DNA of 64,000 bases. Source: Gigantopelta aegis (lineage: Eukaryota > Mollusca > Gastropoda > Neomphalida > Peltospiridae). The notes under the pieces were generated by a model. It did no database searches. It was given only the letters and a program-made list of their open reading frames with translations, and was not told the DNA's origin. A program made the position numbers and the translations under genes. The stretch lies in NCBI RefSeq assembly GCF_016097555.1, contig NC_054710.1, forward strand, positions 186,001 through 250,000, written 5' to 3'. How positions within the stretch are numbered: the first letter of the stretch is position 1; each line of letters starts with the position of its first letter. This document shows positions 8,267-60,429 of the stretch, in pieces.

Positions 8267-9427
8267 TTAACACGGATATAGCCGGCTGATGTCGTGCAAA
8301 AACGTTTCCAAGTCGAGTTTTGGTCGCAGTATTCCGTCATATGGAGATCAAATGATGTCTTTCTGGTATGTGTAGCCGGTAATTGACGTTTTATGCACCA
8401 CCATGTGTTCTCTATTAGGTTAGTACACGCACCAGTCACAGGATCTGGAAATATAATATATTCACAATTGTATTTTATGCATTAATGTAACTATAGCAGT
8501 GTAGGCTTTAGGCTTTAATTTTAGGTTTTAGGGTTAAGGGTTTAGGGTTAGGGTTTAGGGTTTAGGGTTTAGGGTTAGGTTTTAGGGTTAGGGTTAGGGT
8601 ACATACCAAAAAAAATTTGTGAATGATTCACAGTTGAATGGGTGTAATCGTTTTTGCTTTCTTTGATGCCGTTGTATCCCTTCCATAAATCTGTCATGAT
8701 GTGCCACATACTCTTCTATGATTGGTAGTAGAGTGTCTGCGTCTCTCTTATCAACCGGCACTAAAAACACTTGTCTTGTTTCACGGCAGATCCCACCCAA
8801 TACCCATTGTCCTTCCACCACTCTCCCACGTTGATATTTCCTTTTTCCAAATTTTGCCTCATCTATTTCTACAACTTTTCCAGGCCCCCCGATCTGTTTC
8901 GTGCCTTCAGTTTCTACAATGTAGGAACAGACTTCTCGACAGTAGTTGTAATAGTCGTTAACAGTTTCTCGTGATGTTTCTAAGACACGTTGTTCGTCTC
9001 CACTGTCGTCTGTAGTTGATAGGGATGTTTCTTCTATGGCTTGATGATAGTCAATTTTTTTTACAAAACAGTAGGTTAGAAAAATACTCTTACGGTAAGA
9101 GATTTTAGCTCCAGCAAACCAGCTACCCGTTCGTAGTTGCACTTGATTTTTTCCAGTTTTCGTACACATTTTTTTGTTGCATTGGTAACGACAATCAATG
9201 GTTTTTGTAGCTTTGCGTTTTATCTCGTATAACTTTGTGAGGTCCTCTTGACAAGTAGGACATTTTACACTCTTTGGGAGTAAATTATAATGTTGGCAAA
9301 ACTTTATAGTATTGTCCAAAGTATCTAATTTTGTGTACAGTCTGCACAGATTTAAACTTTTTACTTTTCCTCTCTTTTTTCTCTTAAACTCACTATCCTC
9401 CTCCTCTGGTTTCCTTTTTTCCGACAT
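8267..9427 (-). pseudogene. Merlin transposase (ISXO2/IS1595-like), two exons
   Basis: DDE transposase of the surrounding element. Exon 1 (8607-9427) starts MSEKRKPEEEDSEFKRKKRG, a basic leader. It has a zinc-ribbon-like region (CPTCQED ... CRYQCNKKMC), then VVEIDEAKFGKRKYQRGR with the first catalytic Asp, EGQWVLGGICRETRQVFLVP and, after a one-base frame change near 8700, TDLWKGYNGI and HSTVNHSQIF with the second Asp. The donor GTATGT is at 8606-8601 and the acceptor AG at 8446-8445, giving a phase-1 intron of 162 bp. Exon 2 reads DPVTGACTNLIENTWWCIKR with the probable catalytic Glu. A further frame change near the C-terminus (about 8345) leads to a stop at 8267-8269. The same intron position is used in the copy at 62799-64000, which supports the splice model. 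Confidence 0.88.
8520..8600 (+). repeat. Telomere-like TTAGGG/TTTAGGG array inside the Merlin intron
   Basis: About 80 bp of irregular GGGTTAG, GGGTTTAG and GGTTTTAG units on the plus strand. On the transposase strand this reads CCCTAA and begins immediately after the splice donor. It fills nearly half of the 162-bp intron. The homologous intron in the second Merlin copy (62993-63098) has no such array. Confidence 0.9.
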
Positions 9428-9696
9428 ATCGATGTTTGAATGGTATTATATTTCATAAAATCAATGCTTTTATAGGGATGGTTTGCCATGCAACAATACG
9501 CCTACATAGTTGCGTGATGCATTTGAAAATCATGCTGCACGTACATCACACGGGGTTCGGATTTTATATTGTTCATATGTGTTTAGATTATATTACTTAC
9601 CTTTCGAGAGACTTCGTATAATTCCGGAATCATTCGTATAATTCCGCCATTTATTTACTGCAGTAATGACTTGAAATTATTGATCGTTTTAAGCAA

Positions 9697-9780: not shown

Positions 9781-10259
9781 AGTGGTTTATAGTATAAAAA
9801 TTAGTTGCAGTCATTGTTGTGTTATATGATGAGATGTGTGTGATAATAGAAGAAAGGAAGGTAAGGAATAGAAGAAAGGAATATTACGACCCATAATTAT
9901 TTATTTATAAAAAAAATATATATATATTTACTTCTTTATTACTTTCCCCCAAAAGACCATGCCCCTCTTTTCTATATAAGCCCCATCAAAAAAAAACCTC
10001 TTTAGATTGATAGATAGGGGGGAAAATTCGGTACTCTTTCCGTCACAACTTTTCTTTTGTTTTAGTAGTAAAACAAAGCCAAAAAATGGGCGTGGCGCCA
10101 CATCTTGAAAATTTCATAACTTTTTTAATATTGAACCTAGAACAAAAATTAAAACTGCATTTTAAAGCATTTCCTGGGCTCTGTAGAATGATAATTGATT
10201 TCTCTCTATCTTTGTTGGTTAAATTTTTTTGTCACGTACCTAAACATAGTGATTGCAGA

Positions 10260-10833
10260 ATAAATAGGTTATTACTACAATGCTACTCCAGCAGCAGGGT
10301 GTGCGTACAGACTGGAACTGCTCACAATAGCCGCTTCGATCGAAAATATATCAAATTATCTGCCCACTGGATGCAAGAAACGCCCGAATAACTCAAATAA
10401 ATCACCCAGGATAGAATGAGAAGACGATAAATGATTTTTACATTGGGTTTATAAGGTCGTTGAAAGACTTTAAAGATCCGAAAATCGTCTTGGATTATGA
10501 CCATTCGAGAGCAACAGATCGTCAAAGCCGGCTTACCAGACAATTTCGATCGTCGTTTATTATTTTGATCGTAAAATCACCTTTTTTGGCAATATTTTCA
10601 CATAGTTTTTAATCTAATGATTCCTACATTTGTTATTTCTTTGATAATAGTCTTGACTTGTGTTTATATCGAGTACTTACCACTTATTTTGAAATTTTCA
10701 ACAAACGTTGTCCGCACTGCCGTTCCTCATGTTTGCTTCTCAGTCGACACTCGGAGCTAGCCTCGGAAAACGGCCTGCGCATGCGCGCCCTATTCGTATT
10801 CGAGTTACAAATATGTTTAATCTGAAGAAGGTA
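10260..10833 (+). repeat. Dispersed repeat R1, copy 1
   Basis: 10260-10410 (GAATAAATAGGTTATTACTA ... GTGTGCGTACAGACTGGAAC) recurs at 20375-20540 and, inverted, at 12541-12610. 10450-10830 (for example CCGAAAATCGTCTTGGATTA and TTTTGATCGTAAAATCACCT) recurs at about 25800-26186. No coding frame is conserved. It is non-coding repeat sequence that flanks several of the array-bearing elements. Confidence 0.8.
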
Positions 10834-11230
10834 CGGTTATAGAATATGTCCGCCACCTAAATACAACCATTTACTATACACTAAATAACGGTTTAGTTTG
10901 TTTTAGGAAAATAGGGTCGATTGATTTTCTGTTTTACTTTATTTTAATTTAGGAACTTTGTCGGTCGATTGTTACAGAGGAGTGTTGATAGCCTACACGG
11001 CTACAGTGATTAGGGTTAGCAAGGGGGGCTAGGGGGGCTGGCCCCCCCAATAAGTCTTAATGTCCATATTTTTTTTTTTTTTTTTTTTATTATTATTTTT
11101 TTCTAAATAAATTATTTAATTTTATTTCTTTTTCCTCCGCAAAAAACCCATGCCCCACTTTTTTTAAGAATCCCCACCAAAAAATCCCTCTTTTTACAAA
11201 AGGATTAGTGGCGGACAGATTCTATAACCG
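10834..11230. mobile_element. Short inverted-repeat element (397 bp) inside R1
   Basis: The left end CGGTTATAGAATATGTCCGC is matched inverted at the right end (GGCGGACAGATTCTATAACCG, with one or two differences). The R1 copy at 26186 runs on without it. Its right part (CCCATGCCCC ... CCCCACCAAAAAATCCCTC) resembles sequence near the right end of the Merlin element at about 9950-10010, so it may be a Merlin-related miniature. A 24-base T-run lies inside. No clear target duplication. Confidence 0.6.
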
Positions 11231-11317
11231 CTCCAAATCTTGTCGTTTATGAAGGAATTTATTATATTTTGAGGTCGGAAAGTATGGATTGTTTTATATG
11301 TATAGACGCTTTCCAGA

Positions 11318-11400
11318 CGGTTCGTCCACTGGACAATTCGTCCACCGGACGGTTCGTCCACGGACGATTCGTCCACTCACCTTGGACAATTCGTCCACTC
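11318..11400 (+). repeat. TTCGTCCAC array
   Basis: Five spaced copies of TTCGTCCAC, each joined by GGAC-type linkers (for example CGGTTCGTCCACTGGACAAT). It follows the R1 tail GAGGTCGGAAAGTATGG. Inverted copies (GTGGACGAA) occur at 59930-60190, and another forward array lies at 48475-48610. The interior next to the array (TTTTTTTCAAACATATTAAT) is also shared, inverted, at about 60070-60110. Confidence 0.85.
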
Positions 11401-11674
11401 GATGAGTGCATTTTTTTCAAACATATTAATAGTTATTTCTTTGACATTGTAATCGTTTCTTAACATTATTTTGTGGTATACTATAACCAAAAAAGTAAAA
11501 TAGAGTTAGAATTCAACATTAATATCCAGTTTTTATTAACTGTTTGTACAATTTAATTAAAATTAGCTCCACTATTGCATGTTTCGTGTGAATTACGAAT
11601 GCCTTAAAACAAGTTTTATTTGATAAAAATGAAGACTGATAACCCATCCCGTACGTATTGGTATGGTTCGCTGG

Positions 11675-12537
11675 GTATCAGGTCGTTTCGTAACCATACC
11701 GTTTCGTACCATACCGGTTCGTACCCAAAAGCATACCAGTTCGTACCCAAAGGCATACCAGTTCGTACCCAAAGGCATACCAAACAAACAAAGGCATAAA
11801 TTAAAACAAAAAGTTGTATTCTTCTATCAAAAATGTATTATATCGGACAATGTAGGCATTATTAGACCTAAAAAAAAGTCCACATTCCAAAAACATGGGA
11901 TATCAGATCTTATTATATTTTTGTTATATGTGTGTGCGCACGTAAGTACGTGTGCGTGTATGAATGTTTTTGTTTTGAGTATATATATGTACGAAGAGAG
12001 GATCGGTGTTGCGAAATATTCCGATCGATATCTCGGAACGGTTATGCATAACAATAAACACCATCGCTGCACTGTGGAATCGACACCAAATTACAAGACA
12101 AAAGAATTGCTCTTTGGCTACGAAAAGGTATGCTTTTTGGCTACGAAAAGGTATGCTTTTTGGTTACGAAAAGGTATGCTCTTTGGTTACGAAAAAGTAT
12201 GCTCTTTGGCTACGAAAAGGTATGCTTTTTGGCTACGAAAAGGTATGCTTTTTGGTTACGAAAAGGTATGCTTTTTGGTTACGAAACTGCATGCTTCAGT
12301 GATGCACAGCACATAATTGCTCATTTAATGCTTATAAAAGATACTGAGTAATTGTTACAACATTTTTTTTGCTAAATGTTACAATATGTTTGTAATATAA
12401 CATTATAATTGTGTATTTAAAAAATATATTAATGTTAGGTGTAATGTATGACATTATTTAATTGGTTACGAACTGGTATGCTAGTGGTTACGAAACGGTA
12501 TGGTACGAACGTGTTTGGGTACGAAACGTCTAGAAAC
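11675..12537. mobile_element. Element Z: short transposon with inverted 22/23-bp arrays
   Basis: The left end GTATCAGGTCGTTTCGTAAC is followed by units of AGTTCGTACCCAAAGGCATA (22-bp period, 11716-11780). The right end, read inward, is GTTTCTAGACGTTTCGTACC. Before it lie eight 23-bp units of GGTTACGAAAAGGTATGC at 12116-12299. The right units are the inverted counterpart of the left ones. About 330 bp of the right part is shared with element Y (22783-25722). No protein is encoded; the long open frames through the array arise because the 23-bp unit has few stops. I do not see matching target duplications here. Confidence 0.8.
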
Positions 12538-12540
12538 CTT

Positions 12541-22535: not shown

Positions 22536-24300
22536 CCAATACACCCGACATTGATGGTACACAGTATTTTACGCAGATATCACTTCTCTATTAGTAATTG
22601 TGAATTAAATTTGATCTACAAAAACGACGTGTCTATATACGGTAGACAAACATTTAAATTGTCTAAAGTTAACAATGTCCATTACTAACATAAACTGACA
22701 GAACACAATCAGTCGCAAACATAACGAACGTACTGAGTAGCGCCGTCCCTTGTAGTGCTGACTGCAATGACCCATACACGTGGTATCAGGTCGTTTCGTA
22801 ACCATACCGGTTCGTACCCAAAAGCATACCAGTTCGTACCCAAAGGCATACCAGTTCGTACCCACATTTGTACATGTTATTTAATGAAACACAAAACAAC
22901 AAAAATCCAAGCCAACTGCATTTTAATAATTAGCGATTAGAAATTGTCACGAAGAACCATAAAGACAAACATTAATGGCACTTGTTTTGTGTTCCTCTCG
23001 TGCTGTTTTCAAATATTTATGGGCACAATATCCGTAAAATTCGGTTTTCATAAACATGTTGTCAAATGGATAGAGCATCACACATGTAGCCCAGCCGCTA
23101 GTTATTAGTGAGACGCATTCATTTGTTATCATTATATTCAAACATTTGCTAAGTCTGGTGATTTTTGTCTTACTTTTGCATTACAATACATTTACAAACT
23201 AAAAAGATGAAGTATAGATATAACTTTTTCGTTGCTGCGGAATCAACATTTGCATTTAGCTCAACATTGATTGTACAAATGTAGCTACATTTCTCATAAA
23301 TCACATGTTCTGCATCAGTAAAGCTTCATTTATAGTTCTATCTATGAATGTCCACCTCGATGCACGTCAAAATTTGTTTTTCAACTTTATTATTTTAAAT
23401 TTTAAGTTAATTTTTCGAAGTTTAATTTTTTTTAATGTTTTAAAAACATTTTTAACATGCACTGAGATAGGTATCTTCAGATGCACTCTCAATAACACTG
23501 AATAAGTTCAAGACATTTAATTCTGTAGAATTCTTGTTTGCACTTTACCATATATTTTAGAATTAATATATTATTATACTTTGTCTTTTGTTGGTATTTT
23601 TATGATCATCTGATTTAATTGGAATTCAAAATAGGAACCCCAGTCAGTACAGAAATTAGTCTTTGGACAGTTTCTTCTTTCTGTTCATCATTATCTGATA
23701 GGCCAAACTATCAACAATGTATATTAATATAAACTGTTGATGGATGACAATAGCAAGGATTTCAATGACACAACTGATTTGAATTTCCCCAACCCAAGTT
23801 TTATCTTCCACTTACAACATGTATATCTTTATCAGTTACATCCTTCACTGGAGCAATGTTAGTTTATATATTCCAATTCATGTTTGGATACCTGTATCTG
23901 CCAAGGAATAAACTTAAGTTTCTAGCAGCAAATTGTATTTGAACAATTCTTTGATACAATATTTATTGTGTGTGTACACCAGTTTGGATTCACAGAATGG
24001 AACATTTGGTATAAATACAATATTCTTTAAATTGGTGGATTATCAATAATTCACTATTTGGGTAAAACATAGACGCATAGAATTAGTTGATAACAGTATT
24101 TTTGTATCTACATAAATCCATGTTAAATATTTGAACATGCTCCCCCAAACGTCCAGATTCTTGATGGTGAGAGCAAAAATACTGAAAATAAAAGTAATTT
24201 CTTTTAGGTACATGTGAATTATCTAGTCAGTTTTGTCAGTTTTTCTATATAGAGAGATTGAATACATTTTTAATCTTTACTCAGTTTAACTTGCCATCTT

Positions 24301-24671
24301 GAATGTCACGTCCTGGCTGAATGTCACGTCCTGGCTCAAAGTTTGAGGTGGTTATTTTAATCATTTAATACAATCAGTCATCATTATACCTTTTATTTAT
24401 ACTTGGAACATTGAGAAGAAGGAGAATTAAAAAGGATTTTTATTTCTGAAAAATAGTTTTTAAATTAAACTAACTTTTGTATGTCAAATCAGCCAGGACG
24501 TGACATTATATATTTTGAAAAATAATTTAAAATATTAATTATGATATGAACGAAGGGAAAGTAGTATTTTCATATGCAGTATATTTTAGATATGATGTCC
24601 TGATACATAATTTTTAAATTTGACATAACAGTAATTAAATATTACCAAAAAACAAATGTCACGTCCTGGCT
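24301..24671. repeat. Four copies of AATGTCACGTCCTGGCT, one inverted
   Basis: Two tandem 18-bp copies (24301-24318, 24319-24336), an inverted copy at 24491-24507 and a forward copy at 24655-24671, separated by AT-rich DNA within element Y. The exact identity over 17 bases in otherwise diverged sequence marks them as a unit. They may be the subterminal array of another small nested element. Confidence 0.85.
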
Positions 24672-25396
24672 TACAAATTGTTTTTTTTTCTCCAAATAAA
24701 ACTGTCATTAAAACCCATAAAACATAAGTAAATTGGCAATAAAAGTATATTTGTATGTGCTTAAGGGTGTTAACTTTAAGCTATAATAAAAATTTAGTTT
24801 AACAGATCATTTTGAAATCTTCACACCCATGGACCAAATACCACGGAATGGCCCATAAACAGATTGACTGCTAAATTGGTACACGGTGAAAATCTTGATA
24901 GATCATAGATGCATTCATGGTTGCACCTGTTGGTGTTTTAACTAACGTTAACAACAAAGTTTGGTGTTCACAATGCGATTATACAAGGGCTTCCCTTAAT
25001 TAGTTTTTAATCCATGTCATTGTTTAAAAATTATTTCTTATTATAATGCGTGGATTTTATTTCACATTACCAAACAGAGATGCCATGCATAAAATGTGGT
25101 TGCGAAAAGGTATGCTTTTTGGTAACGAAATGATATGCTTTTTGGTTACGAAAAGTATGCTTTTTGGTTACGAAACGGCATGCTTCAGTGATGCACAGCA
25201 CATAATTGCTCATTTAATGCTTATAAAAGATACTGAGTGATTATTACAACAATTTTTTTGCTAAATGTTACAATATGTTTGTAATATAACATTATAATTG
25301 TGTATTTAAAAAATATATTAATGTTAGGTGTAATGTATGACATTATTTAATTGGTTACGAACTGGTATGCTAGTGGTTACAAAACGGTATGGTACG

Positions 25397-25681
25397 TGAA
25401 TGAATGAATGAATGGATGTTTAACGACACCCCAGCACGAAAGATACATCGGCTGTTGGGTGTCAAACTATGGTAATGCAAATAAATAAAGTGATGATCAA
25501 CATCAATATAAAAATTCAAGGTTTAAAAAAAAACAGTGTAAAGAACTGTGCAAAAACACAAATATCACAGAATTTTACGGATACTGAATTTTACTCAAAC
25601 TTCAATTTTGTGCTGTATTGGCCATTCTCAAAGAGAATGTTACACCCCTGCACCACGGTGAGGTTACAGCACGCGCAGGGG
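25397..25681 (-). mobile_element. SINE-like element (family B) inserted in element Y
   Basis: Flanked by the 11-bp duplication GGTATGGTACG (25386-25396 and 25682-25692). It starts TGAATGAATG with GTTTAACGACACCCCAGCAC and ends ACGCGCAGGGG on the plus strand, so it lies inverted relative to the copies near 1350 and 2173. Its removal restores the right array of element Y. Confidence 0.92.
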
Positions 25682-25759
25682 GGTATGGTACGAACAGGTT
25701 TGGGTGCGAAACGTCTAGAAACCATACACGTCACGTGACCATCCTGTGTCGAACCGTCC

Positions 25760-26216
25760 TGTGCAGAGCCGGCTCTGCACACAGGGTGGTAAGCTTTTGG
25801 ATACGTATAAGGTCATTGAAAGATTTTAAAGCTCCGAAAATCGTCTTGGGTTATGACCATTCGAGAACAACAGATCGTCAAAGCCGGCTACCAGACAATT
25901 TCGATCGTAGAGTTTATTATTTTGATCGTAAAATCACCTTTTTTGGCAACATTTTCACATAGTTTTTAATCTAATGATTCCTACATTTGTTATTTCTTTG
26001 ATAATAGTCTTGACTTGTGTTTATATCGAGTACTTCCTTACCACGTATTTTGAAATTTCCAACGAAGGTTGTCTACACTGGCGTTCCTCGTGTTTGCTTC
26101 TCAGTCGACACTCAGAGCTAGCCTCGGAAAACGGCATGCACGCCCTATTCGTATTCGAGTTAAAAATATGTTTAATCTGAAGAACATTAAATTCTCTAAA
26201 TTATGGTGCCCAATAT

Positions 26217-26247
<31 letters not shown>

Positions 26248-26389
26248 GGGGGGTTGAGCTGATTTTATGGTAGAAAATTGCGTTTGAAAGTCAAAATTGT
26301 GAAATCTTGTCGTTTATGAAGGAATGTATTATATTTTGAGGTCGGAAAGTATGGATTGTTTTATACGTATAGAAAGCTTGGAATCTCCT
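25760..26389 (+). repeat. Dispersed repeat R1, copy 2
   Basis: 25800-26186 matches 10450-10830 closely. 26300-26389 (GAAATCTTGTCGTTTATGAA, GAGGTCGGAAAGTATGG) matches 11236-11300 and, inverted, about 60350-60415. It lacks the 397-bp element found in copy 1. A poly-G run of about 23 bases lies near 26231-26253. Confidence 0.8.
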
Positions 26390-29300
26390 CTACATCGTGG
26401 TATCAGGTCGTTTCGCCCTTATTCCCGATTGCCCCGTGTCGTTTCGCCCCAATACCGGGTCGTGTCGCCCTCTTTATGTAACGGGGTAAAAATATATGAC
26501 ACTGTATGTATGTATGTTTTATTTTATTTGCTACTTATTTTATAATATTTTATTAATGGGTTATTTCGTTTGTTTTTAGGATATTCGTCGTAGAGAATAC
26601 CCTATTAGACAACGCCCTAACCTTTCTTTCCCGTCAAATTGGAGTTTAGCCAATGATATTTTATTCTGGTGTCATGTGACATTGGTCACGGCTAGTCCGT
26701 GCCACATTCACATTGAACAGCAACAGAGGTTTTGGATGTATATATTCTGATAACATATAACTGTTAAATAATCCAAGCCCGTAGCCAGGATTTTTGAAGG
26801 GGGGTTCTTTTTGGTATTAAAAGGGCACTTGCGAGCAACACTTGGCTGGGGGCTGCCTAGGGCCCCCGGTGGGGTCTAGGGCCAAAGCCCCTGGTGGGGG
26901 TTAATTGATTTCATAGGCCAATAAATATATAAAAAACAGGCAATTAGTTGAGAGTTTTTAATAACAATAGAGAAAAACCATGGGTCATGCACCAATAATC
27001 CTAGTATGATATAAACTCCAAAGGGATACAACCAACCATGAACAAAAATGGCTTGCATCACTTTGTATTTTGTACCATAGGGCCTACTGTAATTTTGTTA
27101 AGACAGAATCAGTAAAATAAAGAACTTTGAAACATATTTGTATGTCTTGTTATTAAGCATGGATAATGCTAGTAAACTGCATTCTTCTAGGTTGTTTCCT
27201 ACAAAAAATGTCAATTACACTACTGGTTGGAATTTCTGTGTCATAATGTATGTGCATCATTGCAAGGGAGGTTAGCCGATCCTGACCCATGCTTCACCGC
27301 ATGTAGTTATTGAGCCTTCTCATGGCACTGAAGCTACGTTCACAAATGCAGGATGTCACAGGAATGACACAGCCGATCTTGAGAAGAATAAAAAATATTT
27401 GGAAATTGCACTTCATTACACTGTTTAAGCCCATCTGCACAGTTGTTGGGAATTTGTGCAGAATCTGGTAACTTCTTAAATTTCATTTGCCAACCGATTA
27501 ATTCTTCTTCCAGAAGTTCTGGGCAAGACAAGTCATCGTCATACAACTCGGCACAAGCTATGATGTCCTCGTAGCCGATATCCTTGGTTAGAAACACACT
27601 TGGAACAAGTGCCAATAACTTTGAGGCCTTCTTACAAACATCGCAGAATTGGCTATCAAGTTCTGCAATGATATGATCGATAAATGGAATTGCAGTATTC
27701 CTTAGATAGTACTGCAAAGGGCTACTTGACACGGCATTGTCACGGTGCATCTGATTTTTCGCAACCCGTGGTACTGTTGGTTCAGTGCCAACTGAAGCAG
27801 CTACAGAAACAGCATGCTGGTACACTCCTTCAAAGTAGCTATCGAAATCATTTCTTATTTCCTTGTACTCTTCCTTTACTCATTCGATCACCGAAACAGC
27901 ACTTACAATATCACTTGCTTCTTTTTGTAGAAGAACAGTAATGCCATGCAATCGAGATAAGAGTTTGTAAACGGTCGTAAATGTAATGATGAATTGAAAA
28001 TCACACAGGGAATTGAGAAGAGATGATGCCCTGGCCTTGCTGTTTCTATCCCAGTTACCATTCCGAGCCAAATCTGCATCGAAACCTTCATCGTTATGCA
28101 GGCCATAAGCGATAACTTCCAAACATTTCACTATGTAGATATATGCCTGGTAGAAGTGCTGGTACGCTCGGTGTCGTTCTGCCCATCTCGTCTTGCAGAG
28201 GTCTAGCAGAGACTTCCTTCTTGATGTATCATGGGGATTGCAAGTCCGAATGATGCTCGATAGGAGGGCCTCGCGCTTAGGACTGCTGTTGAAGAATAAT
28301 GATGTCTCCTTTAACTTGTCCAACATGTTCCTTACTGGTGTTAATGCAGAGGCGTGTGCCAGGACTAGATTAAGGCAGTGACTGCTACAGTGTGTATAAA
28401 CTGCTAATGGGGCTTCTTCACGTATTCTTGCTTGAACGCCAACAGTGTTGCTAGACATCGATGCAGCACCATCATAACCTGGTCCTCTTAGGTTTTCGAC
28501 AGGTAGGCCTGCGTTTCTTAATGTTGTTAACAGTGTACATGCCAAGGCTTCTCCAGTAATTCTGATCACAGAGACAAATCCCAAAAATTCTTCACGGACA
28601 TTATTTTCATTGTCAACAAACCTGAGGCATACTGTTCTTTATTGTGCGTTGTTATCTAATCAGCCATAATGGAATAGAGTTTAGGTTGTCTAACTTCATC
28701 AATAAGTTTTGCTTGTAGGATGTCTTCACCAATTATGTTTATCAACTGATTCTGAATGTCGGGAGATATGTATTTACCATTCTTTTGCCTTGCATCCTTA
28801 AGATGATGGTTTAGAACTTCATTGTCTCTACTCATTAGCTTAAGTATTGCCAGAAAATTTCCCGGGTTTCCTGGCTGGTCAAAAGACAATTGCCTCAACA
28901 ATACATGACAATATTTCTCGGTTTTCACGTATCATCTCCATTTTCTTCTTCTCCAGAAGTACTGGTACCGCTCTATCTGTATGCAGTAAATTCTCTTGAA
29001 ATATTTCAGAATCAGTAATAGCACTAATGTGTGATTTTGAAGTCGCATGATCCTTGAAAATATGAGAACATCGTGTCCATTTGGTGAATGACAGATTTAC
29101 AAGGGAGCCTCTACTGCTACGGTCCTTTGTAAAGAGGGCACAGTAAATACAGAAGACACCATCAAGCCTTGCACTATAGACAATCCATGGGTACTTTTCA
29201 ATCCAAGAATACTTAAAAGAACGATTACAGCCATTCATGAAGACAGCTGGAAAAGCATACCTCGAGTCTGGTCGATAATGCTTTTGAAGCAAATGCAAAG

Positions 29301-29875
29301 TCTGAGCTTTCAGTTTAGCAGTTATTTCTGCAGCTGACATTGTCGCATCAGTGAACTGACCCAAGTCATCTGGAAGAGGAACATTATTATTATTGTTATT
29401 TTTATTTCATTACCCGAGCGGTCACTCATAAGAGGGAAAATATTTTCAATATTTTCTCAGTGAGAAATATTCTGCATTGGTCTAACGAACAATACTATTG
29501 GACAATTTGACACTTACAACCAACGGCTTTGTCGGTACTAAATATGACGTCATCACGATTTGACAAACACACACAATTACGTCATGTAGTTTAAGGAGTT
29601 TGCGTTTACGGCTCTCTGTGTTTGGTGTTAAATTTATAACAAAATGTCATTTTAATGCAATTCATTATAGATTTTAAAGCAGAATAGAGAGAACTTGTGT
29701 TTTTGAAAATTATCTATGAACGTGTTTAAATTAGAACGTTATAGTAATTCTCAGAACAGTGCATAAAGTGGTTTACATCGTTCCTATACAGGTCGGCCTT
29801 CGTGCATGTGCGTGGAAAATAAAGGTTTTTAGAGAAAAAATAGCTGAGGTAATAAATAGAATAACAAACTCGGTA

Positions 29876-29987
29876 CCAGTTATTATCAAATTTATGTCCC
29901 TCGTGAAATAATTTTCATTTGTCACTCGCTAAAGCTCATGACAACTGAAAATTATTTCACTTGGGACATAAATTTGATAATAACTGG
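29876..29987. mobile_element. Hairpin element with 40-bp arms in the hAT intron
   Basis: CCAGTTATTATCAAATTTAT and the following bases up to about 29918 recur inverted up to 29987 almost perfectly, with a short loop. AAACTCG occurs on both sides (29866-29872 and 29988-29994), a likely target duplication. It would fold into a strong stem in RNA or single-stranded DNA. Confidence 0.82.
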
Positions 29988-30416
29988 AAACTCGTTTATA
30001 TCCTTTATATAGTTACTGCAAGTATTGATTGAGGCAGAGTATATTTTAATGTCTGTCTGTTGACATCTTACAAATTTAACTCAAATTTAATATGCATACC
30101 ATAGAGTGTTTCAACTGATTGAAGATCATCATCATTGCTCTAAATCACTTCAATTTGGTCTGGATGGTCTCCACTGGATTCTAAAGTTGTGTCCACTAGA
30201 CTTTCTTGCAATTCATTGCCATGGTTTAGAAGATTAATTCCATCAGAGTTAGTAGCACTACCAGAAGCATCGGTAAGTGAATCAGATTGAGGCCCATTAG
30301 TAAGAAAATAAAACATAAGCATTGTAAGTTCTAAATTTTGTGAAGAATGACAAGCCATGAGCCGGCTGCCCATAAATTATAATTGATTTTAAATAAGTCC
30401 ATGATGATGATAGTTA

Positions 30417-30738
30417 AAAGTTTGTTTGTTTTGTTTAACGACACCACTAGAACGCATTGATTTACAAATCATTGGCTATTGGATGTCAAACATATGGTAA
30501 TTGTGACACGTAGTCAGAGGAAACCCACTACATCTTGTTTCATGTTGCAAGGGATCTTTTATATGCACTTTCCCACAGACAGGATAGCGCATACCACGGC
30601 CTTTGGTATACCAGTCGTGGTGCACTGGTTGGAACGGACGAAAGCCCAATCAGAGAATTGGTCCACCGAGGCGATTCGATCTTTCGACGACCAAAGGACC
30701 TCAAGCAAGCGCTCTACCGACTGAGCTAGATCCCGCCC
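30417..30738 (-). mobile_element. tRNA-derived SINE (family A) in the hAT first intron
   Basis: Flanked by an 18-bp duplication CCATGATGATGATAGTTA (30399-30416 and 30739-30756). On the minus strand the head reads GATCTAGCTCAGTCGGTAGA, a clear tRNA A-box region. Its tail ends in TTTGTTTG on the plus strand. It is one of the youngest-looking insertions in the nest. Confidence 0.95.
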
Positions 30739-31628
30739 CCATGATGATGATAGTTATTATTAAATTTGGTTTTCAAATTAAACATTTGCAGTGATTATTT
30801 CCATACCTTTTGTTGAAGAATTCCATGAGCTTCTTGCATTGTTTTGCCGAACCTTGTAGTTTCTGAAGCTCTTCCCTCACTTTCCTTTTCGTCGACGGCA
30901 TATTATTATAGGCCTAGGCCTATGCCAGCCAGGACACAATTCAATAAATTACTAGGTCAATTACTAAATTGTAGGTCTAATATTAGTCTACAATTTTGCT
31001 GTTAGTCAATATAACATGTGGGCATAATCATCCACTTCAACAATTCTATTCATGTGATTAGGGCAGGCCATCAAAATGTCATCCAATTAACCCTCTGAAG
31101 GCTGGTGTTGCAAATTTGCAACAATACATTAAGTAGGCTGCATTTATTATTTTGTTTAATGTTACATATAAAATTGAGTGTCAGTTGGCTAGAGTGTAAC
31201 ATTGTTTCAATATTGTAATAATTCGTTCTGATATATAACAAAAGGGGATGCTCTGGGTGTCACTGAAAAATTGTCGGTTTCAGCATGTTTCAGAGTGGCA
31301 GGACATGACTCGGGGGGGGGGGGGGGGGAGGGGCGGCTCCAGCGTAGTATGAAAGGTCACTTCAGAAAAAGGGGGGTTCGTTCGAACCCTACGAACCCCA
31401 CTGGCTATGGGCTTGTAAACTATAAATTGGTATCCTTGACGATGTGTATTTTGTCAAGTTGAGAGATGTATAACATTTTCATTGTATGATGATGACACGG
31501 TGTTTTACCAATTACATATTTTTATATACTATTTTCAGGACCTTTATTTGACGGTTGCCAAATAAACGGAATCCTACCCAGCATTGTTGTTGTCTTTCTG
31601 ATTAGAGGGATTTAACCCAAATGCTACA

Positions 31629-33460
31629 ATGGAGCCGACGTAGGGACTCGAGATGACGTCGTTTCCTGTGTTGAGACAATCCGTGAACGGACAGACGGAC
31701 AGTGTTGTGTTGGACATTGAACAGTACAAAAACTTGCTCAGTGAGCATTTTGTGTATTGTGTTCTGTGTATTCTCTATTCTCAACTGCAGTTCAATTTAA
31801 TGCGAGTAGAAGCTTGTTTTATTGACAGAGCTCTGGTATGTGTGTGTTTATGTATATATATATATTTTTGTAATAAGGTGAATGTAAATTTTTTATATAA
31901 CCACTCATCAAATGTTAAAATACTTTGAAATGTTGATAGTATCATTTGTTTATCACTTGTGAGATATTAGATATTTTTTCTGTTGTACATCTCACAATCT
32001 TTGATTTTTGTTAGGACTGTTAAATCTTGTTTGATGAACATGTCATGACTTTAGTGATATAATAGGAAGTTGTGATTTTATAGTTCATTTTTTTATTTTA
32101 TTGTTGTTGTTTTTAGTGTGTGCGTGTGTGTTTTTGTTTTTTTAAATATTTTTTTGCTTGGTTATATTTACGTTACACACTTGGTCAACATAGCTGTAGT
32201 TGTGCTTACCTGTTGAGTAGTTTGTATTTTGCAGTTTGAAAGCTAGTTTAATTTCGCTCATATTTGCGAATTAAATGTGTATTGTAGGTTAGTTTAATAT
32301 AAACTTATTAATTAAATTTCAATTAAATTAGAAATTTAAATTTAAATTTAAAATTTAAAATTGAATTATTATTTATTTATTTTTATTTTTTATTGCACGT
32401 GTTCAACTCACAACTAACATAAGCACGCACATGACAGTCCTTTTCTGACTTGATTTAGCCTTACCAGTTGTTTTCCTTTCAGCTTTCTTCATTCCTTATT
32501 CTGTGTAATAAAACACAGCTACTCGTTAATATATTATTGTGATTGACAATCAACATTTAAGGATGTCTTGATAATTAAGTGGTAGTGCTTACAATTATAA
32601 TCTGCAAGGATACTGAAACACTCCTGGTTATATAGTTCACTTAGTTGTTTTATGTCCCAAGTGGTACAGGGTGAAGTTTATTTTCTATCCTGTGGTCCTC
32701 TTGGTATTATATGTGACCCGCTCTGTCAAAACCAGGCACTTGGTGATATTTTTCAAAATTGAGTAATTTCAAGTATTAAGAAAATTATGGCGATTTAAAG
32801 ATACTGATGTACGGAACTCGAAAACGGAGAAAACAGGCTTAAAATTTGGACAAAGGGTAAGTTTAGATTCCATATCAAATTCCTTAGCAACCAGAGTTAT
32901 TTTTTTACCATTTAGGTTTATTTTGCTTATACATGAACACAGCAACTCTCCAAAGCAATTTTAATTTTAAAAAGATTGTTTTATTCAGTTAGGATAAAAA
33001 TCTTGAAAGTTTGTGTCGATTTGTTTTTCGAAATCCTGGGTTTTAGTACGGGCTAAGTGCAACCAGTTTACTTTGTCCTTGTTTACCTATTTCTGATGCC
33101 TGCTTAATTAAAATGGGTGGTGTTTTAACTACAAAATCATATTCAATAAAAATGTGTCAATTTAAACAATAATTTATTAGTATTAATGATCTGTGGGTAA
33201 TACAAAAAAAAATAATAATAAAAAAATAATAATAATACAAAAAATAAAAAAAATAAAAATAAAAATAAAAAACAACAACACCACCTATTTGATAGCTAAG
33301 ACACCGAAATGACGGAGATTGTCACACTGGAACACGAAAAGTGGTGCTTCACACCAGATGTATGTAATGCACAATAATCCAGATTGTCATTGTTTATGTG
33401 TGTGTAATAATTATTGCCAAAAAAAGAGCACTATTTACAATGAATGTGTCTGTTGTAATG
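31629..33460. other. Interior of the LTR-type fossil; no gene recognised
   Basis: 31629-31660 follows the left terminal repeat with TGGAGCCGACGTAGGG, a possible primer-binding region. A 91-codon frame at 31653-31928 has no recognisable domain. 31930-33390 is AT-rich with A-runs near 33205-33280. Confidence 0.35.
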
Positions 33461-34629
33461 TTATTTTCCTGTACGACGGCCACGCCCAGTACCACGAGCA
33501 ACTCGTCCTCGCTTGCTCGGTCTCTGTTTAGGAGCTGTCTCCATTGCCCTTTTCTCAGTTTGCTGATTAGTATGTACATCCTCTTCCGAATCAGACTCTG
33601 TGATGATTTCTAATGGCTTGGGGCACACGAGATCCTTTGTCTCATCTTTGCAAAAGTCCCTGATCTCCTTGAACAAGTATGCCCTTCTCGCCAAGTCCAT
33701 ACCCTTGGGGTTGATGACATGCGGCATACCAACAGGAACTGCATCCGTCTTCTTGAGGGTGAATGCTCTCCAGTCGTCATCTGATTTCGACTTATACTTT
33801 ATCACCCCTGGTTCTTTTGCTGAGAAAAAGAAGTGTTGGTGAGACTCGATTCCTGGAAACCGTCTGAAAAAGTCTGCTAGAAAAGGGGTCCAGTCATATA
33901 TCGGCACTAACACATTGGCTTCCTGATCACCAACTAACTGGGTGTGATTAATTCCCTTTTCTGTCCACTTGTTGACTACATCCTGAAGCTCGGCCAAGGA
34001 GGAAACAAATGTTCGTTTAAACAGTCGTTTGAATAGGCCAAAGCACCAATCTGGCGCAAATTTAGTGTGACCTGCTAACATGAAGTGCATGTGAATTGTA
34101 GTATGAAGTCCCACAAGAGTACGCCAGCAAAGGTACCACATTACACAATTGTTTTTGTTTTGGCCACAGCAGTTGTCTGCATTGAGATCAAGGTGCATTT
34201 CACCAATTCCATAGTTGCCCAGGAAATGGTGTAGGAGGCTGATGACGGCATTTGCCCCCTTGCCACTAAAAACAGCTTAGTCAATCAAATAATTTATCTG
34301 ACATGGTATTCCTTCTGCATGTGTACCGAACACCCGGCATTTCCTAGGGGTCTTAAAGTATATTGGACCAGGTTGCTGAGGATCGGCAGGATAGTGCACC
34401 TCTTGTGCATAATCGAAGGAGTAGTTAAAGTGTAAATCCCGTGTGTTGCAGCTGTTGTTTTGGTATCACTGCACTTAGCTTTGTAAAATGATCGTTCCAT
34501 CATAGCAAGATGAAGGTGCTGTTCTTGTTTTCTCAATACCTCTGACTTGGACTGCTCATCTACATTCACGTGAAAGACATGAAACAATAAAAACACTTAG
34601 AATTATGCACATCATTTCAATAATCAGAG

Positions 34630-35499
34630 CTTCTAGATTATGGTAACCCCACTCCCACGGTTAGTGATATTCAATGTTGGGCTAGTAAATAACTACTATT
34701 GCCATGCCCGACAGGACTTCTAGATTATGGTAGCCCCACTCCCATGGCTAGTGATATTCAATGTTGGGCTAGTAAATAACTACTATTGCCATGCCCGACA
34801 GGACTTCTACATTATGGTAACCCCACTCCCATGGTTAGTGATATTCAATGTTGTGCTAGTAAATAACTACTATTGCCATGCCCGACAGGACTTCTAGATT
34901 ATGGTAACCCCACTCCCATGGTTAGTGATATTCAATGTTGGGCTAGTAAATAACTAATATTGCCATACCAGACAGGGCTTCTAGATTATGGTAGCCCCAC
35001 TCCCATGGCTAGTGATATTCAATGTTGGGCTAGTAAATAACTAATATTGCCATGCTAGACAGGGCTTCTAGATTATGGTAACCCCACTCCCATGGCTAGT
35101 GATATTCAATGTTGGGCTAGTAAATAACTACTATTGCCATGCTAGACAGGGCTTCTAGATTATGGTAGCCCCACTCCCACGGTTAGTGATATTCAATGTT
35201 GGGCTAGTAAATAACTACTATTGGCATGCTAGACAGGGCTTCTAGATTATGATAGCCCCACTCCCATGGTTAGTGATATTCAATGTTGGGCTAGTAAATA
35301 ACTACTATTGCCATGCCCGACAGGACTTCTACATTATGGTAACCCCACTCCCATGGTTAGTGATATTCAATGTTGGGCTAGTAAATAACTACTATTGCCA
35401 TGCCCGACAGGACTTCTAGATTATGGTAACCCCACTCCCATGGTTAGTGATATTCAATGTTGGGCTAGTAAATAACTACTATTGCCATGCCCGACGGCT
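34630..35499 (+). repeat. Ten tandem 87-bp units in the DUF7869 intron
   Basis: Units start with CTTCTAGATTATGGTA at 34630, 34717, 34804, 34891, 34978, 35065, 35152, 35239, 35326 and 35413, exactly 87 bp apart and more than 90% alike. Each reads CCCCACTCCCATGGTTAGTG ... GGGCTAGTAAATAACTACTA. Single units occur in the R2 copies at 12838-12930 and 20130-20190, so the array is an expansion of the R2 monomer. Confidence 0.97.
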
Positions 35500-35760
35500 A
35501 GTGAAAAAAAAAGAGTCAAATGTGGTAAATATGAATATCCTGCCCCCACCCAACACCCTGATGTTAGTGTTGTTAAGCTCTATATCCCCCTTTAGGTGAC
35601 ATCTGATTATTACTATTATTTAGTAAAATTGTATTGACTTAAAAGTAAAGTAAGGCTAATGAATTTTTAATTGCGGCTTGTACATTTTTAAAAATCATTG
35701 ATCCCATGGCTAGTGGATTTTATAAAAATTATAGAATTCCTGATAATGTTGTAGCAGTTA
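35500..35760 (+). repeat. R2 tail following the 87-bp array
   Basis: CAAATGTGGTAAATATGAAT to ATTGATCCCATGGCTAGTGG matches, inverted, 19901-20130. Together with the array it forms an R2 element lacking its head. 35760-36028 is AT-rich intron with nothing further recognised. Confidence 0.75.
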
Positions 35761-36360
35761 TAAAAAAAAAGAATTATATTTTCCAATCCATCTGGCAGAC
35801 TGCATTGCATTATTTATTTTAAAATTAAAACCCCCAGTTGCGCTATAAAAAGGTGGTGTTATAACAGGACGTCATTATGCATTTGGAGTGCATTGAGATA
35901 CATCCGATTGCTAAACTGTGAACTGGGGCATTAATGAGGTATGTTGTCCATTATGCCAATATTCACTCTAATTATACTAATAATAATAGTCATATAAAAA
36001 TATTGTGTACATTTTCTATTACTCACACATTTCGCAATCACGTTATTGTTTTTTTGGCATGTCCAACAAAGATCAGATGCAGGCCTGGCTATTACAACGT
36101 AGGGAGTGAGGTGTGCCCAGAGTTTTCTGAATGTGGAACATCCAACGACTCGTTGGATCTGGTGTTGCAGCAGAACGGTAGAGGCGCCACACCTCTGTTT
36201 TGTTGAAATTGCTTGGGATCACTTTTATGTCATCCCTCTTGAATCATAGGATACGTCCTGGAAGGAGTATGGCATGATCTGCAGCGAAGTTTAATATATA
36301 CCTGGTCACGTTTCGAACATCATCCAACACCAGTGCATGTTTGCTATTGGACCGTCCAAC

Positions 36361-36946
36361 TAAAAAATTATAAAAGATAAAAAAAAGTTTTTTTTTAAAA
36401 ACAAAACAAAAAAACAAACAATAAGAGGTATCACTATGACCAATGAGAGGCACCTACAAGAAGAAAAATAACTGATTATTAGGAAGTGGTGTTCCGATGA
36501 TCGATTATAATCGAAAATTGATCGGTTGGGGCTCTAGCAATGTGATGATCGATTTTGAAATTGATAATCGATAGTCGCAGAAATTGTTAACCGCAGTAAA
36601 TATTTCCTTGCTCGTCAGAATTTGTATTAATAAAATCCAGTATTTGTGGTCTATTATTGTGTACGTTTCTTGATTTCTAACCTTTTGAGGCTATGCCGCT
36701 ATTTACCAGTAAAACTGTGTGTTCATTGACATTTATTTATTTTCGCATTTGCCATATAGAATAAAACAAACACTGAGATTTGTTTTGATTTTTTTTTTTT
36801 TAAATAAAATAAAATAATTTTATGTTACATTAAAAAAAATGCATCATTCATTCACAATTGGGACCAAGAAACTATAAATTATTACTAGGCCTATCTAAGT
36901 ACGAAACAAAAACTGATTGTATAATTGAAAGTCGATCGATTAGTGA
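36361..36946. other. No gene; degraded inverted-repeat sequence
   Basis: GATCGATTATAATCG near 36499 and TCGATCGATT near 36933 are loosely inverted, suggesting a small decayed element between the DUF7869 exon and the right terminal repeat. No open frame is supported. Confidence 0.35.
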
Positions 36947-38057
36947 TAATGGGTTATTTCGTTTGTTTTTAGGATATTCGTCGTAGAGAATACCCTATTA
37001 GACAACGCCCTAACCTTTCTTTCCCGTCAAATTAAAGTTTAGCCAATGATATTTTATTCTGGTGTCATGTGACATTGGTCACGGCTAGTCCGTGCCACAT
37101 TCACACTGAACAGCAAGCCATCAACACACGACATAATACTTTGCTATTCTCAACTATTTCTAGATTATTTTTTCATCTTTTCTGTGACGGTTAAACAGGT
37201 TTGACTAACATGAATTTATATATTTATATAATTATTGTCACATTATGTTCCATTATGATTTAAGTATTAACTATTGATAGATATAAAATCATAATCTGTA
37301 TTAAACTATTGATATATATAAAATCATAATCTGTAACTATGGATAGATATAAATTGATAATGTAGTTGACACTAGGGAAAGGTAGTGGTTATAAGTATTT
37401 AAAAGTATATTTAATGTAATTTTAATGTATTTTAAAATATATATTCTTAATTTACTAGACAATAATTATTAGGGTAATTATATTGTATACAATAACGATA
37501 AATATATACAGGTCTAACCATTATATATTTTCGCTTATATTATGATGTTTGTTTATACGATGAGGAATTGCCATCAATACTCAGCAACCAGTTCGGTTCA
37601 TAGCCCACAGCCAAGGTGTGTAACGTAACTATTTATAGGTGTTTGTGTGTACAGTTTCTAGTAACAACGCACACATTTTTCGTGTGTTGTTGGTTTCACA
37701 AGCGTGTGGCCAGCGTTTGTCATTTTGTAAGCTGGATCAATGAACCAGTAGTGTATTTATGTTGTATTGAATCAGTGGGTTATGTCCACGGATGAGGTTT
37801 TGGATGTATACACATGTTTATTCCGATAACGTATAACTGTTAAATAATCTATAAATTGGTATCCTTGACGATGTGTATTTTGTCAAGTTGAGAGATGTAT
37901 AACATTTTCATTGTATGATGATAACACGGTGTTTTACCAATTACATATTTTTATATACTATTTTCAGGACCTTTATTTGACGGTTGCCAAATAAACCGAA
38001 TCCTATCCAACATTGTTGTTGTCTTTCTGATTAGAGGGATTTAACCCAAATGCTACA
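36947..38057 (+). repeat. Right terminal repeat of the LTR-type fossil
   Basis: It matches 26554-26725 at its left (TAATGGGTTATTTCG ...) and 26725-26773 plus 31416-31628 at its right. It carries about 680 bp in the middle that the left repeat lacks. It ends AATGCTACA at the TTTA duplication. The uninterrupted stretch at 37840-37860 is the empty site of the hAT insertion. Confidence 0.7.
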
Positions 38058-38764
38058 TTTACAAGGTCGTTTCGCCCTTATGTTTATGTAGGGAATACCT
38101 ACATGTCGATTGTGAATGATGAATAAATTTGTTTACGTGACTCTAGTTGCAAATTAGATATATGTTATCAATTTGTAACCCTTTATCAACCATAAACACC
38201 ATTTATATGTATATGTTATTATGTGCAATATTTTAAAGAGCCCCTCCCCTCACACCATCTCAGTTTCTACGGGTCTGGTGTATTTTATATTAATAAGTAC
38301 AAAGACTAGCCTACATAATGACATAGTTATAAAGTGATTGTTAGTATGTGACAACATTATAATAGTTTCTAACATTTCTGTTTCTGTGCTCGACTGTGGA
38401 GTTTCGGCAGACTGGTAACACAATTGCTTAATAATTAAAAATACACGGTTTAACCAAACATTAAAATTTGGAGGATAACTAGTTAAGGTAACAAAGAGCA
38501 ATTTATTGTAGTTGTCAACATTTTGTTTCAGACTTCACGTTTAAGTCTACAACTTTGTTGCCTGTTAGGTGACTATTACGACAAAATTATGGGTAAAATT
38601 ATTTTGTATAGACCTAATTTTGCATACTAGTACCACCTCCAATACAATAGGGGTGAAATGACTCATTCTAAGGGCGAAATGACTCGGGGCGAACGGGAAT
38701 AAGGGCGAAACGACTCTGGGTTGAATAGGAATAAGGGCGAAACGACCCGGATTCCTACATCGTG

Positions 38765-48229: not shown

Positions 48230-48910
48230 AAAATAAGTCCTGGCGAACTCGCCCTGGGCGACTTCACCAGGGCGAGATCGACACGGGGCGAGATCGACAT
48301 ACTTCCTTTAAAATATTGCACATAATAACATATACATATAAATGGTCTTTATGGTTGATAAAGGGTTACAAATTGATAACATATATCTAATTTGCAACTA
48401 GAGTCATGTAAACAAATTTATTCATCATTCACAATCGACATGTAGGTATTCCCTACATACACATAAGGGGATGCAGTCGATTCGTCCACTGGACGATTCG
48501 TCCACGGACGATTCGTCCACTGAAAATTCGTCCACTGAGGAACTCGAGACGATTCGTCCACTACAAAAAATCAGTACCGGACGATTCGTCCACTGGGTTT
48601 TTATTTCGTCCATTATTACCCCATATTTTTGAATTTTTATATTTGAATGGATATTTGAATGACATTTGTTGTTTTGTTGAATTTTTTTTTAATGTACATT
48701 TAATTAAATTGGAATTGAATACAACACGTTTTTATTTTATTTCGAGGTCATTAGGCATATGGGGATAACATGTGATTTACGCTATTGAAGGAGAACATGA
48801 CATGGGGTGTGTGTGTTGTGTGTGTGTGAGGGGGTTGATAAAGTCTTCCGACGCGGAGGCTTGAATCACCTATTTACCACATCGTGACATGTGAGCGAGT
48901 GTCGTAGGTT
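48230..48910. mobile_element. Composite array element: GGCGAGATCGAC words, X-type interior, TTCGTCCAC words
   Basis: 48237-48300 carries GCGAACTCGCC, GGGCGACTTC and two GGCGAGATCGACA words. 48300-48480 matches the X interior (38085-38230) inverted. 48478-48610 carries six TTCGTCCAC words. 48655-48895 (TTTAATGTACATTTAATTAA, AAAGTCTTCCGACGCGGAGG) matches 59700-59925 in the same orientation. The large LINE inserted at 48908 cut this element off. Confidence 0.75.
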
Positions 48911-59700: not shown

Positions 59701-60340
59701 TTGTTGAATTGTTTTTTAATGTACATTTAATTAAATTGGAATTGAAGACAACACGTTTTTATTTTATTTCGAGGTTATTAGGCATAACGTGACGAGGGAG
59801 GGTACAGTGGATAGAATTTACGCCATTGAAGGAGAACATGAAGGGGGAGGGGGGGGGAGGTAATAAAGTCTTCCGACGCGGAGGCTTGCATTACCTATTT
59901 ACCACATTGTGTACGAGCGAGTGGACGAATCTTCCGTGGACGAATCATCCGCATGATAATGAATACAAACAGTTCATAAAAACTGGATAGTAATGTTGAA
60001 TTCTAACTCTATTTTACTTTTTTGGTTATAGTATACACAAAATAATGTTAAGAAACGATTACAATGTCAAAGAAATAACTATTATTATGTTTGAAAAAAA
60101 TGCAGTCATCGAGTGGACGAATTGTCCGAGGTGAGTGGACGAATCGTCCGGTGGACGAATCGTCTGTGGATGAAGTGTCCAGTGGACGAATCGACTGGAA
60201 AGCCACATAAGGGCGAAACGACCTTGTAAAGAGGGCGAAACGACCTTGTAAAGAGGGCGACACGACCCGGTATGGGGGTGAAACGACATGGGGTGAAACG
60301 ACACGGGGCGATCGGGAATAAGGGCGAAACGACCTGATAC
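59701..60340. mobile_element. Array element with GTGGACGAA words followed by inverted X-type array
   Basis: 59701-59925 matches 48665-48895. 59928-59950 and 60110-60190 carry GTGGACGAA words (the inverse of TTCGTCCAC). 60205-60340 carries seven GGGCGAAACGAC-type words and ends CCTGATAC, the X terminus, next to CACAATGTAG (the inverse of the X target CTACATCGTG with one change). The flank to 60415 is R1. It preserves X without the large insertions and shows the single TTTA site. Confidence 0.8.
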
Positions 60341-60429
60341 CACAATGTAGAGGAGATTCCAAGCTTTCTATAAGTATAAAACAATCCATACTTTCCGACC
60401 TCAAAATATAATAATTCCAATCTCTAAAA

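What the first reader, a model, noticed from the sequence alone, without database searches (positions are those of the whole stretch)
22783..25722. Transposon family with shared ends but copy-specific array 'words' (element Y as type)
Seen: elements at 11675-12537, 22783-25722, 26400-38754 and about 60340 (inverted) share the terminus GTATCAGGTCGTTTCG. Y has a 9-of-10 target duplication (CATACACGTG/C), and X has a perfect 10-bp one (CTACATCGTG). Inside each end are tandem or spaced short units, inverted between the two ends, and the unit differs by copy: GTTCGTACCCAAAGGCATAC, GTCGTTTCGCCC, TTCGTCCAC, GGCGAGATCGAC. Known: Foldback elements of Drosophila have inverted tandem arrays and 9-bp duplications. 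Inference: this is a MULE/Foldback-like group in which the arrays turn over quickly while the outer 16 bp stay fixed, perhaps because the transposase reads only the tip.
Basis: partly seen in the sequence, partly recalled or inferred. Interest (0 to 1): 0.78.

Follow-up and report, generated by a model that had tools for sequence, protein, structure and literature searches.

The report
MULE transposons with repeated end boxes
These look like cut-and-paste jumping elements of the Mutator kind in a large eukaryote genome, whose ends carry several repeated copies of a short box also found at their tip; the general design is already known, but several families here share one identical tip while each repeats its own version of the box.

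Summary
The tip is real: four exact copies in the window (0.02 expected) and 534 matches in the 1.15-Gb genome. Sampled copies are true transposons. Of 45 tips read, 29 have a partner end of their family; leaving out one same-flank twin, 21 of 28 have an exact target duplication, always 8 or 9 bp (10 and 11 copies), 6 an inexact one and 1 none. The array word goes with the family, not the copy: the same tip heads X-type (GTCGTTTCGCCC), Y-type (GTTCGTACCC) and G-type (GTTTCGGCCC) elements. In five families the array is best matched by the family's own tip, so arrays look like repeats of the tip's inner box. The X-type has a decayed likely parent (L015, 5.9 kb) with Mutator-like transposase pieces; several short copies look like its deletion derivatives. 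No Y- or G-type transposase was found. The window's 26399-38754 element is a ~771-bp X-type copy split by an 11.6-kb insertion, and shares its flank with the 60341 copy. Closest known: Muta/Phantom MULEs and Tm1. A new member of a known kind.

The parts
22782..25723 (+). Y-type non-autonomous element (2942 bp), GGTATCAGG...CTAGAAACC
   Evidence: both tips of the Y family, exact 8-bp target duplication
22774..22781 (+). left target duplication ATACACGT of Y
25724..25731 (+). right target duplication ATACACGT of Y
22810..22863 (+). left array of Y, three units GTTCGTACCC about 22 bp apart
25101..25184 (-). right inner array of Y, inverted units (TACGAAA...GGTATGC), with further boxes up to 25396 and at 25682-25723
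25397..25681 (.). unrelated repeat inserted in Y, 94.8% to 1520-1802
26399..26476 (+). left part of the X-type element: tip with its box and two further boxes (GTCGTTTCGCCC, GTCGTGTCGCCC)
38062..38754 (+). right part of the same X-type element: next left box at 38066, interior, right inverted array 38647-38754
   Evidence: the two parts joined run colinear with X-type L012 and L032 at 88% over the first 340 letters
26477..38057 (.). 11.6-kb insertion inside the X-type left array (TG...CA, TTTA on both sides, near-identical direct repeats; LTR-like, not certain)
26390..26398 (+). left target duplication CTACATCGT of X
38755..38763 (+). right target duplication CTACATCGT of X
11674..12538 (+). 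Y-type element (865 bp), both tips, no target duplication; right array of 8 units with 23-bp period
60325..60341 (-). tip of an X-type copy (boxes 60204-60341), flank shared with the 26399 copy; other end not found in the window
11308..11408 (+). W-type end with word TTCGTCCAC, tip GCTTTCCAGACGGTTCG (3 mismatches to the Y right tip)
59908..60203 (-). W-type piece with TTCGTCCAC arrays, beside the 60341 copy
48470..48600 (+). third W-type array TTCGTCCAC

Best explanation
These are Mutator-like (MULE) cut-and-paste DNA transposons with Foldback-like ends, mostly short non-autonomous copies. Shown: fixed tips, inverted subterminal arrays, and exact 8- or 9-bp target duplications in most complete copies. 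Supported for the X-type family: a longer, decayed likely parent (L015) with MULE transposase pieces, from which several short copies look like internal-deletion derivatives. Inferred: the transposase cuts at the tip and binds the tip's inner box (GTCGTTTCG plus a family suffix) together with its subterminal repeats, so that array units are extra binding sites copied from the tip; within a family box and array stay alike by repeated copying, and new families arise when the box version changes. Inferred and untested: that the Y- and G-type copies, which share the outer 17 bp but have no known transposase, are moved by the X-type enzyme or an unseen relative of it.
For: Tips: 534 genome matches at up to 1 mismatch, 3 for the reversed pattern; Y-type 26-mer 118, control 0. 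Duplications: 29 of 45 tips read have a partner end of their family (up to 2 mismatches); without L036 (same flank as L018) 28, of which 21 are exact at fixed boundaries (11 of 9 bp, 10 of 8 bp, no other length), 6 inexact (L009, L011, L019, L031, L035, L045) and 1 without (11674-12538). Swapped flanks gave 2 perfect matches of 702 pairings. Boxes: 59 in 204 bp inside 23 X-type tips against 2.85 in shuffles, 0 in outside flank (209 bp for 20 loci and the window copies, only 100 bp for L029-L048). Arrays are best matched by their own tip in 5 of 5 families, with the tip taken as bp 5-30 or 5-22. Transposase: L015 has a MULE fragment (PF10551 E 6e-4, 20.6 bits, under the 27.6 cut-off; two pieces joined by me); L012, L020, L026 and L032 match L015 up to 1239 and again from 5369 to about 5897, and L018, L036 and L025 keep L015 1239-1539 at 97% plus 5747-5897; none of the X, Y or P words occurs in L015 1240-5368. 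The tip at C4:95876624 has a piece 84% identical to the L015 exon 3.0 kb inside and an X-like right end about 4.6 kb away. Frames 43% identical to the L015 exon pass the PF10551 cut-off within the same 478-aa open frame (e.g. C1:7924224).
Against: L015's own MULE match is below Pfam's cut-off. The best MULE match (L019, 38.1 bits) lies in a different element (word GACAACTCGGCCC) nested in an X-type copy. At the two closest other relatives of the L015 exon (97% and 95%), 1.7-kb stretches at the tip position I forecast held no tip and no L015 match (L060, L061). None of the PF10551 matches listed lies within 49 kb of the 95 listed tips on contigs C1-C6 (61 of the 150 matches are on these contigs). 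The one transposase hit I could place near a Y tip lies outside that 933-bp element (L059). 16 of 45 tips have no partner end in the stretch read, all 5 G-type among them. Binding to the boxes is not shown.
Confidence: 0.83

Rival explanations
1. Merlin/IS1595-type transposons: 8-9-bp duplications and G-rich tips (recalled) would fit, and two Merlin-like transposase frames lie in the window.
For: Frames 8594-9445 and 63156-63998 share an IDEAKFGKRKY stretch; the family label is recalled, and Pfam gave 0 families for the first.
Against: I saw no such frame by eye in the 20 ten-kb stretches (frames of 130 aa or more, first 160 letters), while L015 has MULE pieces. The genome search with the 8597-9445 protein did not complete, and the ends of the Merlin-like elements were not found.
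Confidence: 0.05
2. The arrays are ordinary minisatellites that grew inside old insertions and have nothing to do with transposition.
For: Unit number varies from copy to copy; short units slip easily.
Against: Units sit at both ends, inverted, with at least 2 left boxes in each X- and Y-type copy counted; the unit repeats the tip's own box with its family suffix. Spacings in X and Y cluster at 21-23 and 30-32, but copies of a family share ancestry and P, G and W differ.
Confidence: 0.15
3. The shared tip is a convergent or exchanged 17-bp cap: three unrelated elements acquired it by recombination.
For: Y-type copies had no blastn match to the X-type copy L019 except through the nested P element in L009 and a stretch outside the element in L044.
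Against: The match runs in register into the inner box in all three families; the X-type right tip (GAATCCGGGTCGTTTCG) and the Y-type right tip (GGTTTCTAGACGTTTCG) look like diverged versions of the same design.
Confidence: 0.15

Closest known systems
Muta1-Muta14 MULEs of Aedes aegypti (placed with the Phantom clade)
   Same: 8- or 9-bp target duplications; Muta1 has a 10-bp terminal motif followed by 12-bp subterminal tandem repeats, and 10 of 12 long-TIR families have such repeats of 9-15 bp; over 300 non-autonomous Muta1 derivatives with varying unit number (PMC5225508, passages; placement PMC6446971, passages).
   Different: Muta1 has 9 units in a 145-bp inverted repeat; here 2-7 boxes on the left and 1-11 on the right, looser spacing and unequal left and right tips. 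The passages read say nothing of families sharing one tip over different repeats.
Tm1, Mutator/Foldback family of root-knot nematodes
   Same: Composite ends with varying numbers of a ~14-bp motif; asymmetric 7-bp terminal motifs; 8-10-bp, mostly 9-bp, duplications in 45 of 53; MITE-like and transposase-bearing groups (PMC3169594, passages).
   Different: The passages describe one repeat motif; several box versions lie under one tip here.
Rehavkus (MULE-related, animals)
   Same: 9-bp duplication, PHD finger, minisatellite before the 3' end (PMC6446971, section 8 and table passages); the nested P element has a PHD-like piece (19.6 bits, under the cut-off of 24), and L015 a stretch 65% identical to it over 29 aa.
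   Different: Arrays at both ends here, and 8-bp duplications about as common as 9; no Rehavkus sequence was at hand to compare.
Drosophila Foldback (FB/NOF) and Galileo
   Same: Inverted arrays of short units at the ends; for Galileo, transposase (THAP domain) binding sites were shown in the repeats (PMC3688188, abstract and passages).
   Different: Galileo ends exceed 1 kb and it belongs to the P superfamily; FB long ends are recalled. No FB or P transposase was seen here.

Membership tests
MULE superfamily | 8-11-bp target duplication | tested here: met
   21 of 28 complete copies exact, 8 or 9 bp; 6 inexact, 1 none
MULE superfamily | terminal inverted repeats | tested here: met
   X-type tips agree at 15 of 20 positions by eye; arrays inverted at the other end. 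G-type other end not found
MULE superfamily | DDE transposase with MULE domain in the element | tested here: inconclusive
   X-type L015: fragment E 6e-4, under cut-off, 43% to frames that pass it; Y and G types: none found
Phantom/Muta | subterminal tandem repeats of 9-15 bp behind a short terminal motif | tested here: met
   short repeated boxes behind the tip; spaced rather than strictly tandem in X
Phantom/Muta | FLYWCH zinc finger | tested here: inconclusive
   L015 piece 21.9 bits, cut-off 23.6
Phantom/Muta | transposase groups with Phantom in a tree | not testable with these tools
   no reference transposases at hand
Rehavkus | PHD finger in the transposase | tested here: inconclusive
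   19.6 bits in the nested P element, cut-off 24
Foldback (FB/NOF) | long inverted repeats of hundreds of bp made of many tandem units | tested here: not met
   2-7 boxes on the left and 1-11 on the right per copy, in the 300 and 450 bp searched
Merlin | IS1595-like transposase inside the element | tested here: inconclusive
   none seen by eye among frames of 130 aa or more in 20 ten-kb stretches; protein search not answered

The most novel reading that the evidence does not exclude
A two-part recognition system: one outer 17-bp tip is kept identical across families because a shared cutting step needs it, while the inner box and its subterminal repeats form a replaceable address that changes in concert within a family, letting families split off or share an enzyme.
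Probability: 0.22. Interest if true: 0.6.

Novelty: new member of a known kind. Interest (0 to 1): 0.38.

Why it matters
What the arrays at the ends of Foldback-like transposons do is only partly known; for FB and Phantom a 2013 paper called it untested whether they are binding sites (PMC3688188, passages). A genome in which several families share one tip but repeat different boxes offers natural swaps: one can ask whether tip or array decides which transposase moves a copy. It also suggests that 'array words' in such elements are repeats of the tip box and not random satellite.

Tried and rejected
Rejected: 10-bp duplications (the extra base belongs to the element). Rejected: the transposase of L019 as the X-type's own; it lies in a nested element with another word, also nested in Y-type L009. 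Rejected: L059 as a Y-type parent. Weakened: helical spacing as a general rule; X and Y cluster at 21-23 and 30-32 (X also 15), but P has 14, 17, 20, 23 and 31, G 14-17, and W mostly 15-16 with values from 12 to 32. Weakened: the 78-bp copy L039 as proof of minimal ends; its junction occurs once in the genome, so it may be a deletion after insertion. Not obtained: genome counts of X- and G-type tips and the list of Y-type right ends.

The 40 genome copies are the first 40 of the 100 places listed, not a random draw. L021-L024 have near-identical flanks and lie within 71 kb of one contig, so they count as one insertion at best; L018 and L036 share a flank.

One search asks for the partner end alone and adds the 11674-12538 element, which has none.

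Full report
What was checked. The tip GTATCAGGTCGTTTCG occurs four times in the window, all exact, against 0.02 expected. The window is part of a 1.15-Gb genome of 5216 contigs, so I take the host to be a eukaryote; repeats containing GTTTAACGACACC look molluscan to me, which is recall and untested. Genome-wide there are 282 + 252 matches with at most one mismatch, against 3 for the reversed pattern. I read 45 tips: 40 from the first places listed, 4 in the window, and L059.

Boundaries and duplications. The base before GTATC is G in 43 of 45. Two kinds of right end were found: GGGCGAAACGACCCGGATTC for X-type and GGGTACGAAACGTCTAGAAACC for Y-type. Of 45 tips, 29 have such a partner end at up to 2 mismatches, 16 do not; the 16 are 7 X-type (one of them the 60341 copy), 4 Y-type and all 5 G-type. 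Leaving out L036, a same-flank twin of L018, 28 remain: 21 duplications are exact at fixed boundaries, 11 of 9 bp and 10 of 8 bp; six are inexact (L009, L011, L019, L031, L035, L045) and the 11674-12538 element has none. Swapped flanks gave 2 of 702, the number that the L018/L036 twins would give by themselves. L028 has an exact 9-bp repeat at a right end that lacks about 10 bp, and L014 a degraded right end with a repeat a few bases off; neither is counted.

Families, not copies. By the letters after the tip, the first 44 tips are 23 X-type, 16 Y-type and 5 G-type. In X-type arrays 59 boxes (TCGTTTCG, up to one mismatch) lie within 204 bp inside the tip against 2.85 in shuffles, and 48 of 59 are followed by CCC as at the tip. 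The 9 such boxes in Y-type arrays are all followed by TAC, and of 4 in G-type arrays 3 are followed by GCC; Y-type units further in read GTTCGTACCC. Some X-type copies (L029, L034, L040) have more diverged arrays. Two more kinds of element have the same layout with other tips: P (word GACAACTCGGCCC, nested in L019 and L009) and W (TTCGTCCAC, in the window). Comparing tips with arrays 31-120 bp inside, each array is best matched by its own family's tip in 5 of 5 families: 12.0, 10.6, 10.2, 12.0 and 11.8 of 12 letters with the tip taken as bp 5-30 (own shuffled arrays 7.9-8.5), and 12.0, 9.8, 10.2, 12.0 and 11.8 with bp 5-22. Up to 8 copies per family were used; P and W have only 2 and 3, and 4 of the 5 G copies are near-identical. 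Read the other way the pattern is weaker: the Y tip (10.6) and the G tip (10.6) match the X array as well as or better than their own, because the three tips share their core. Hence arrays look like copies of the tip's inner box, drifting by family.

Transposase. Pfam finds a MULE domain at 38.1 bits (cut-off 27.6) in spliced pieces from L019, but comparison with other copies shows that these lie in a nested P element. The X-type's own gene is probably that of L015, 5897 bp with an exact 8-bp duplication: L012, L020, L026 and L032 match it up to 1239 and again from 5369 on (apart from a stretch near 120-825 that only L015 has, and small gaps), and L018, L036 and L025 keep another part of its interior at 97%. 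A second insertion between 1540 and 5368 is not excluded, but none of the X, Y or P words occurs there. L015 holds PHD-like, FLYWCH-like (21.9 bits, cut-off 23.6) and MULE-like (20.6 bits) pieces in several open stretches, so it is decayed or intron-split. Its exon is 43% identical to the P enzyme and about 43% to open frames elsewhere that pass the MULE cut-off. The tip at C4:95876624 has an 84% piece 3.0 kb inside and an X-like right end; its left end was not read. Against this, L060 and L061 showed no tip where I expected one for two closer relatives, and no Y- or G-type gene was found.

The window's elements. Y is 22782-25723, with an unrelated repeat inserted at 25397-25681. X is a ~771-bp X-type copy, 26399-26476 plus 38062-38754, split by an insertion of 11,581 bp with TG...CA ends, TTTA on both sides and direct repeats of 97.7-98.2%; the first ~80 bp of the left repeat have no partner, so 'LTR-type' is probable, not certain. 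Joined without the insert (773 letters as cut in the script) it runs along L012 and L032 at 88% over the first 340 letters. The copy at 60341 shares its outside flank with X. The 11674-12538 element has two Y tips but no duplication; it may be a recombinant.

Mechanism. Shown: insertion with 8/9-bp duplications, fixed tips, inverted arrays. Supported: deletion derivatives of a MULE-bearing parent for X-type. Inferred: cutting at the tip and binding to the boxes, as binding was shown for array units of Galileo (PMC3688188, abstract and passages) and as the Muta1 layout suggests (PMC5225508, passages). Unknown: what moves the Y- and G-type copies.

Known or new. The layout, the duplication lengths and the many non-autonomous copies agree with Muta/Phantom MULEs and Tm1. 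One tip over several box versions is not mentioned in the passages I read; the listings of searches with 'MULE', 'subterminal', 'foldback' and related terms and with three end sequences (one unrelated bacterial paper) showed nothing on it in titles and abstract starts, but most listed papers were not opened, and subscription papers and Repbase were not searched. I file it as a new member of a known kind.

Noticed in passing
window 26477-38057: LTR-like insertion in the X-type array: TG...CA ends, TTTA repeats, direct repeats 97.7-98.2%; it holds frames at 27340-29406 that look hAT-like to me (DUF4371 at 27.1 bits, under its cut-off of 32.1) and a DUF7869 frame (33461-34276, E 3e-15).
   Followed up: partly
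window 8594-9445 and 63156-63998 (minus strand): Two diverged Merlin-like (recalled label) transposase frames sharing an IDEAKFGKRKY stretch; Pfam gave no family for the first.
   Followed up: partly
window 10243-11306, 25806-26399, 60341-60418: Parts of one host repeat occur three times; in two an X-type element and in one a W-type end sits at or within about 30 bp of the same point.
   Followed up: no
window 50233-58745 (minus strand): A LINE-like stretch with a reverse-transcriptase-like frame (by eye) and an endonuclease frame (PF14529, E 5.7e-18), interrupted by long G runs.
   Followed up: no
window 34630-35495: Tandem array of an 87-bp unit, about ten copies, with single relatives at 12845 and 20141.
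   Followed up: no
L018 and L036: X-type copies on different contigs with the same outside flank and duplication: perhaps a segmental or haplotype duplicate.
   Followed up: no
L009 (about 290-1450) and L019 (466-3275), element coordinates: Nested P-type MULE with word GACAACTCGGCCC; transposase pieces 93% identical between the two.
   Followed up: partly
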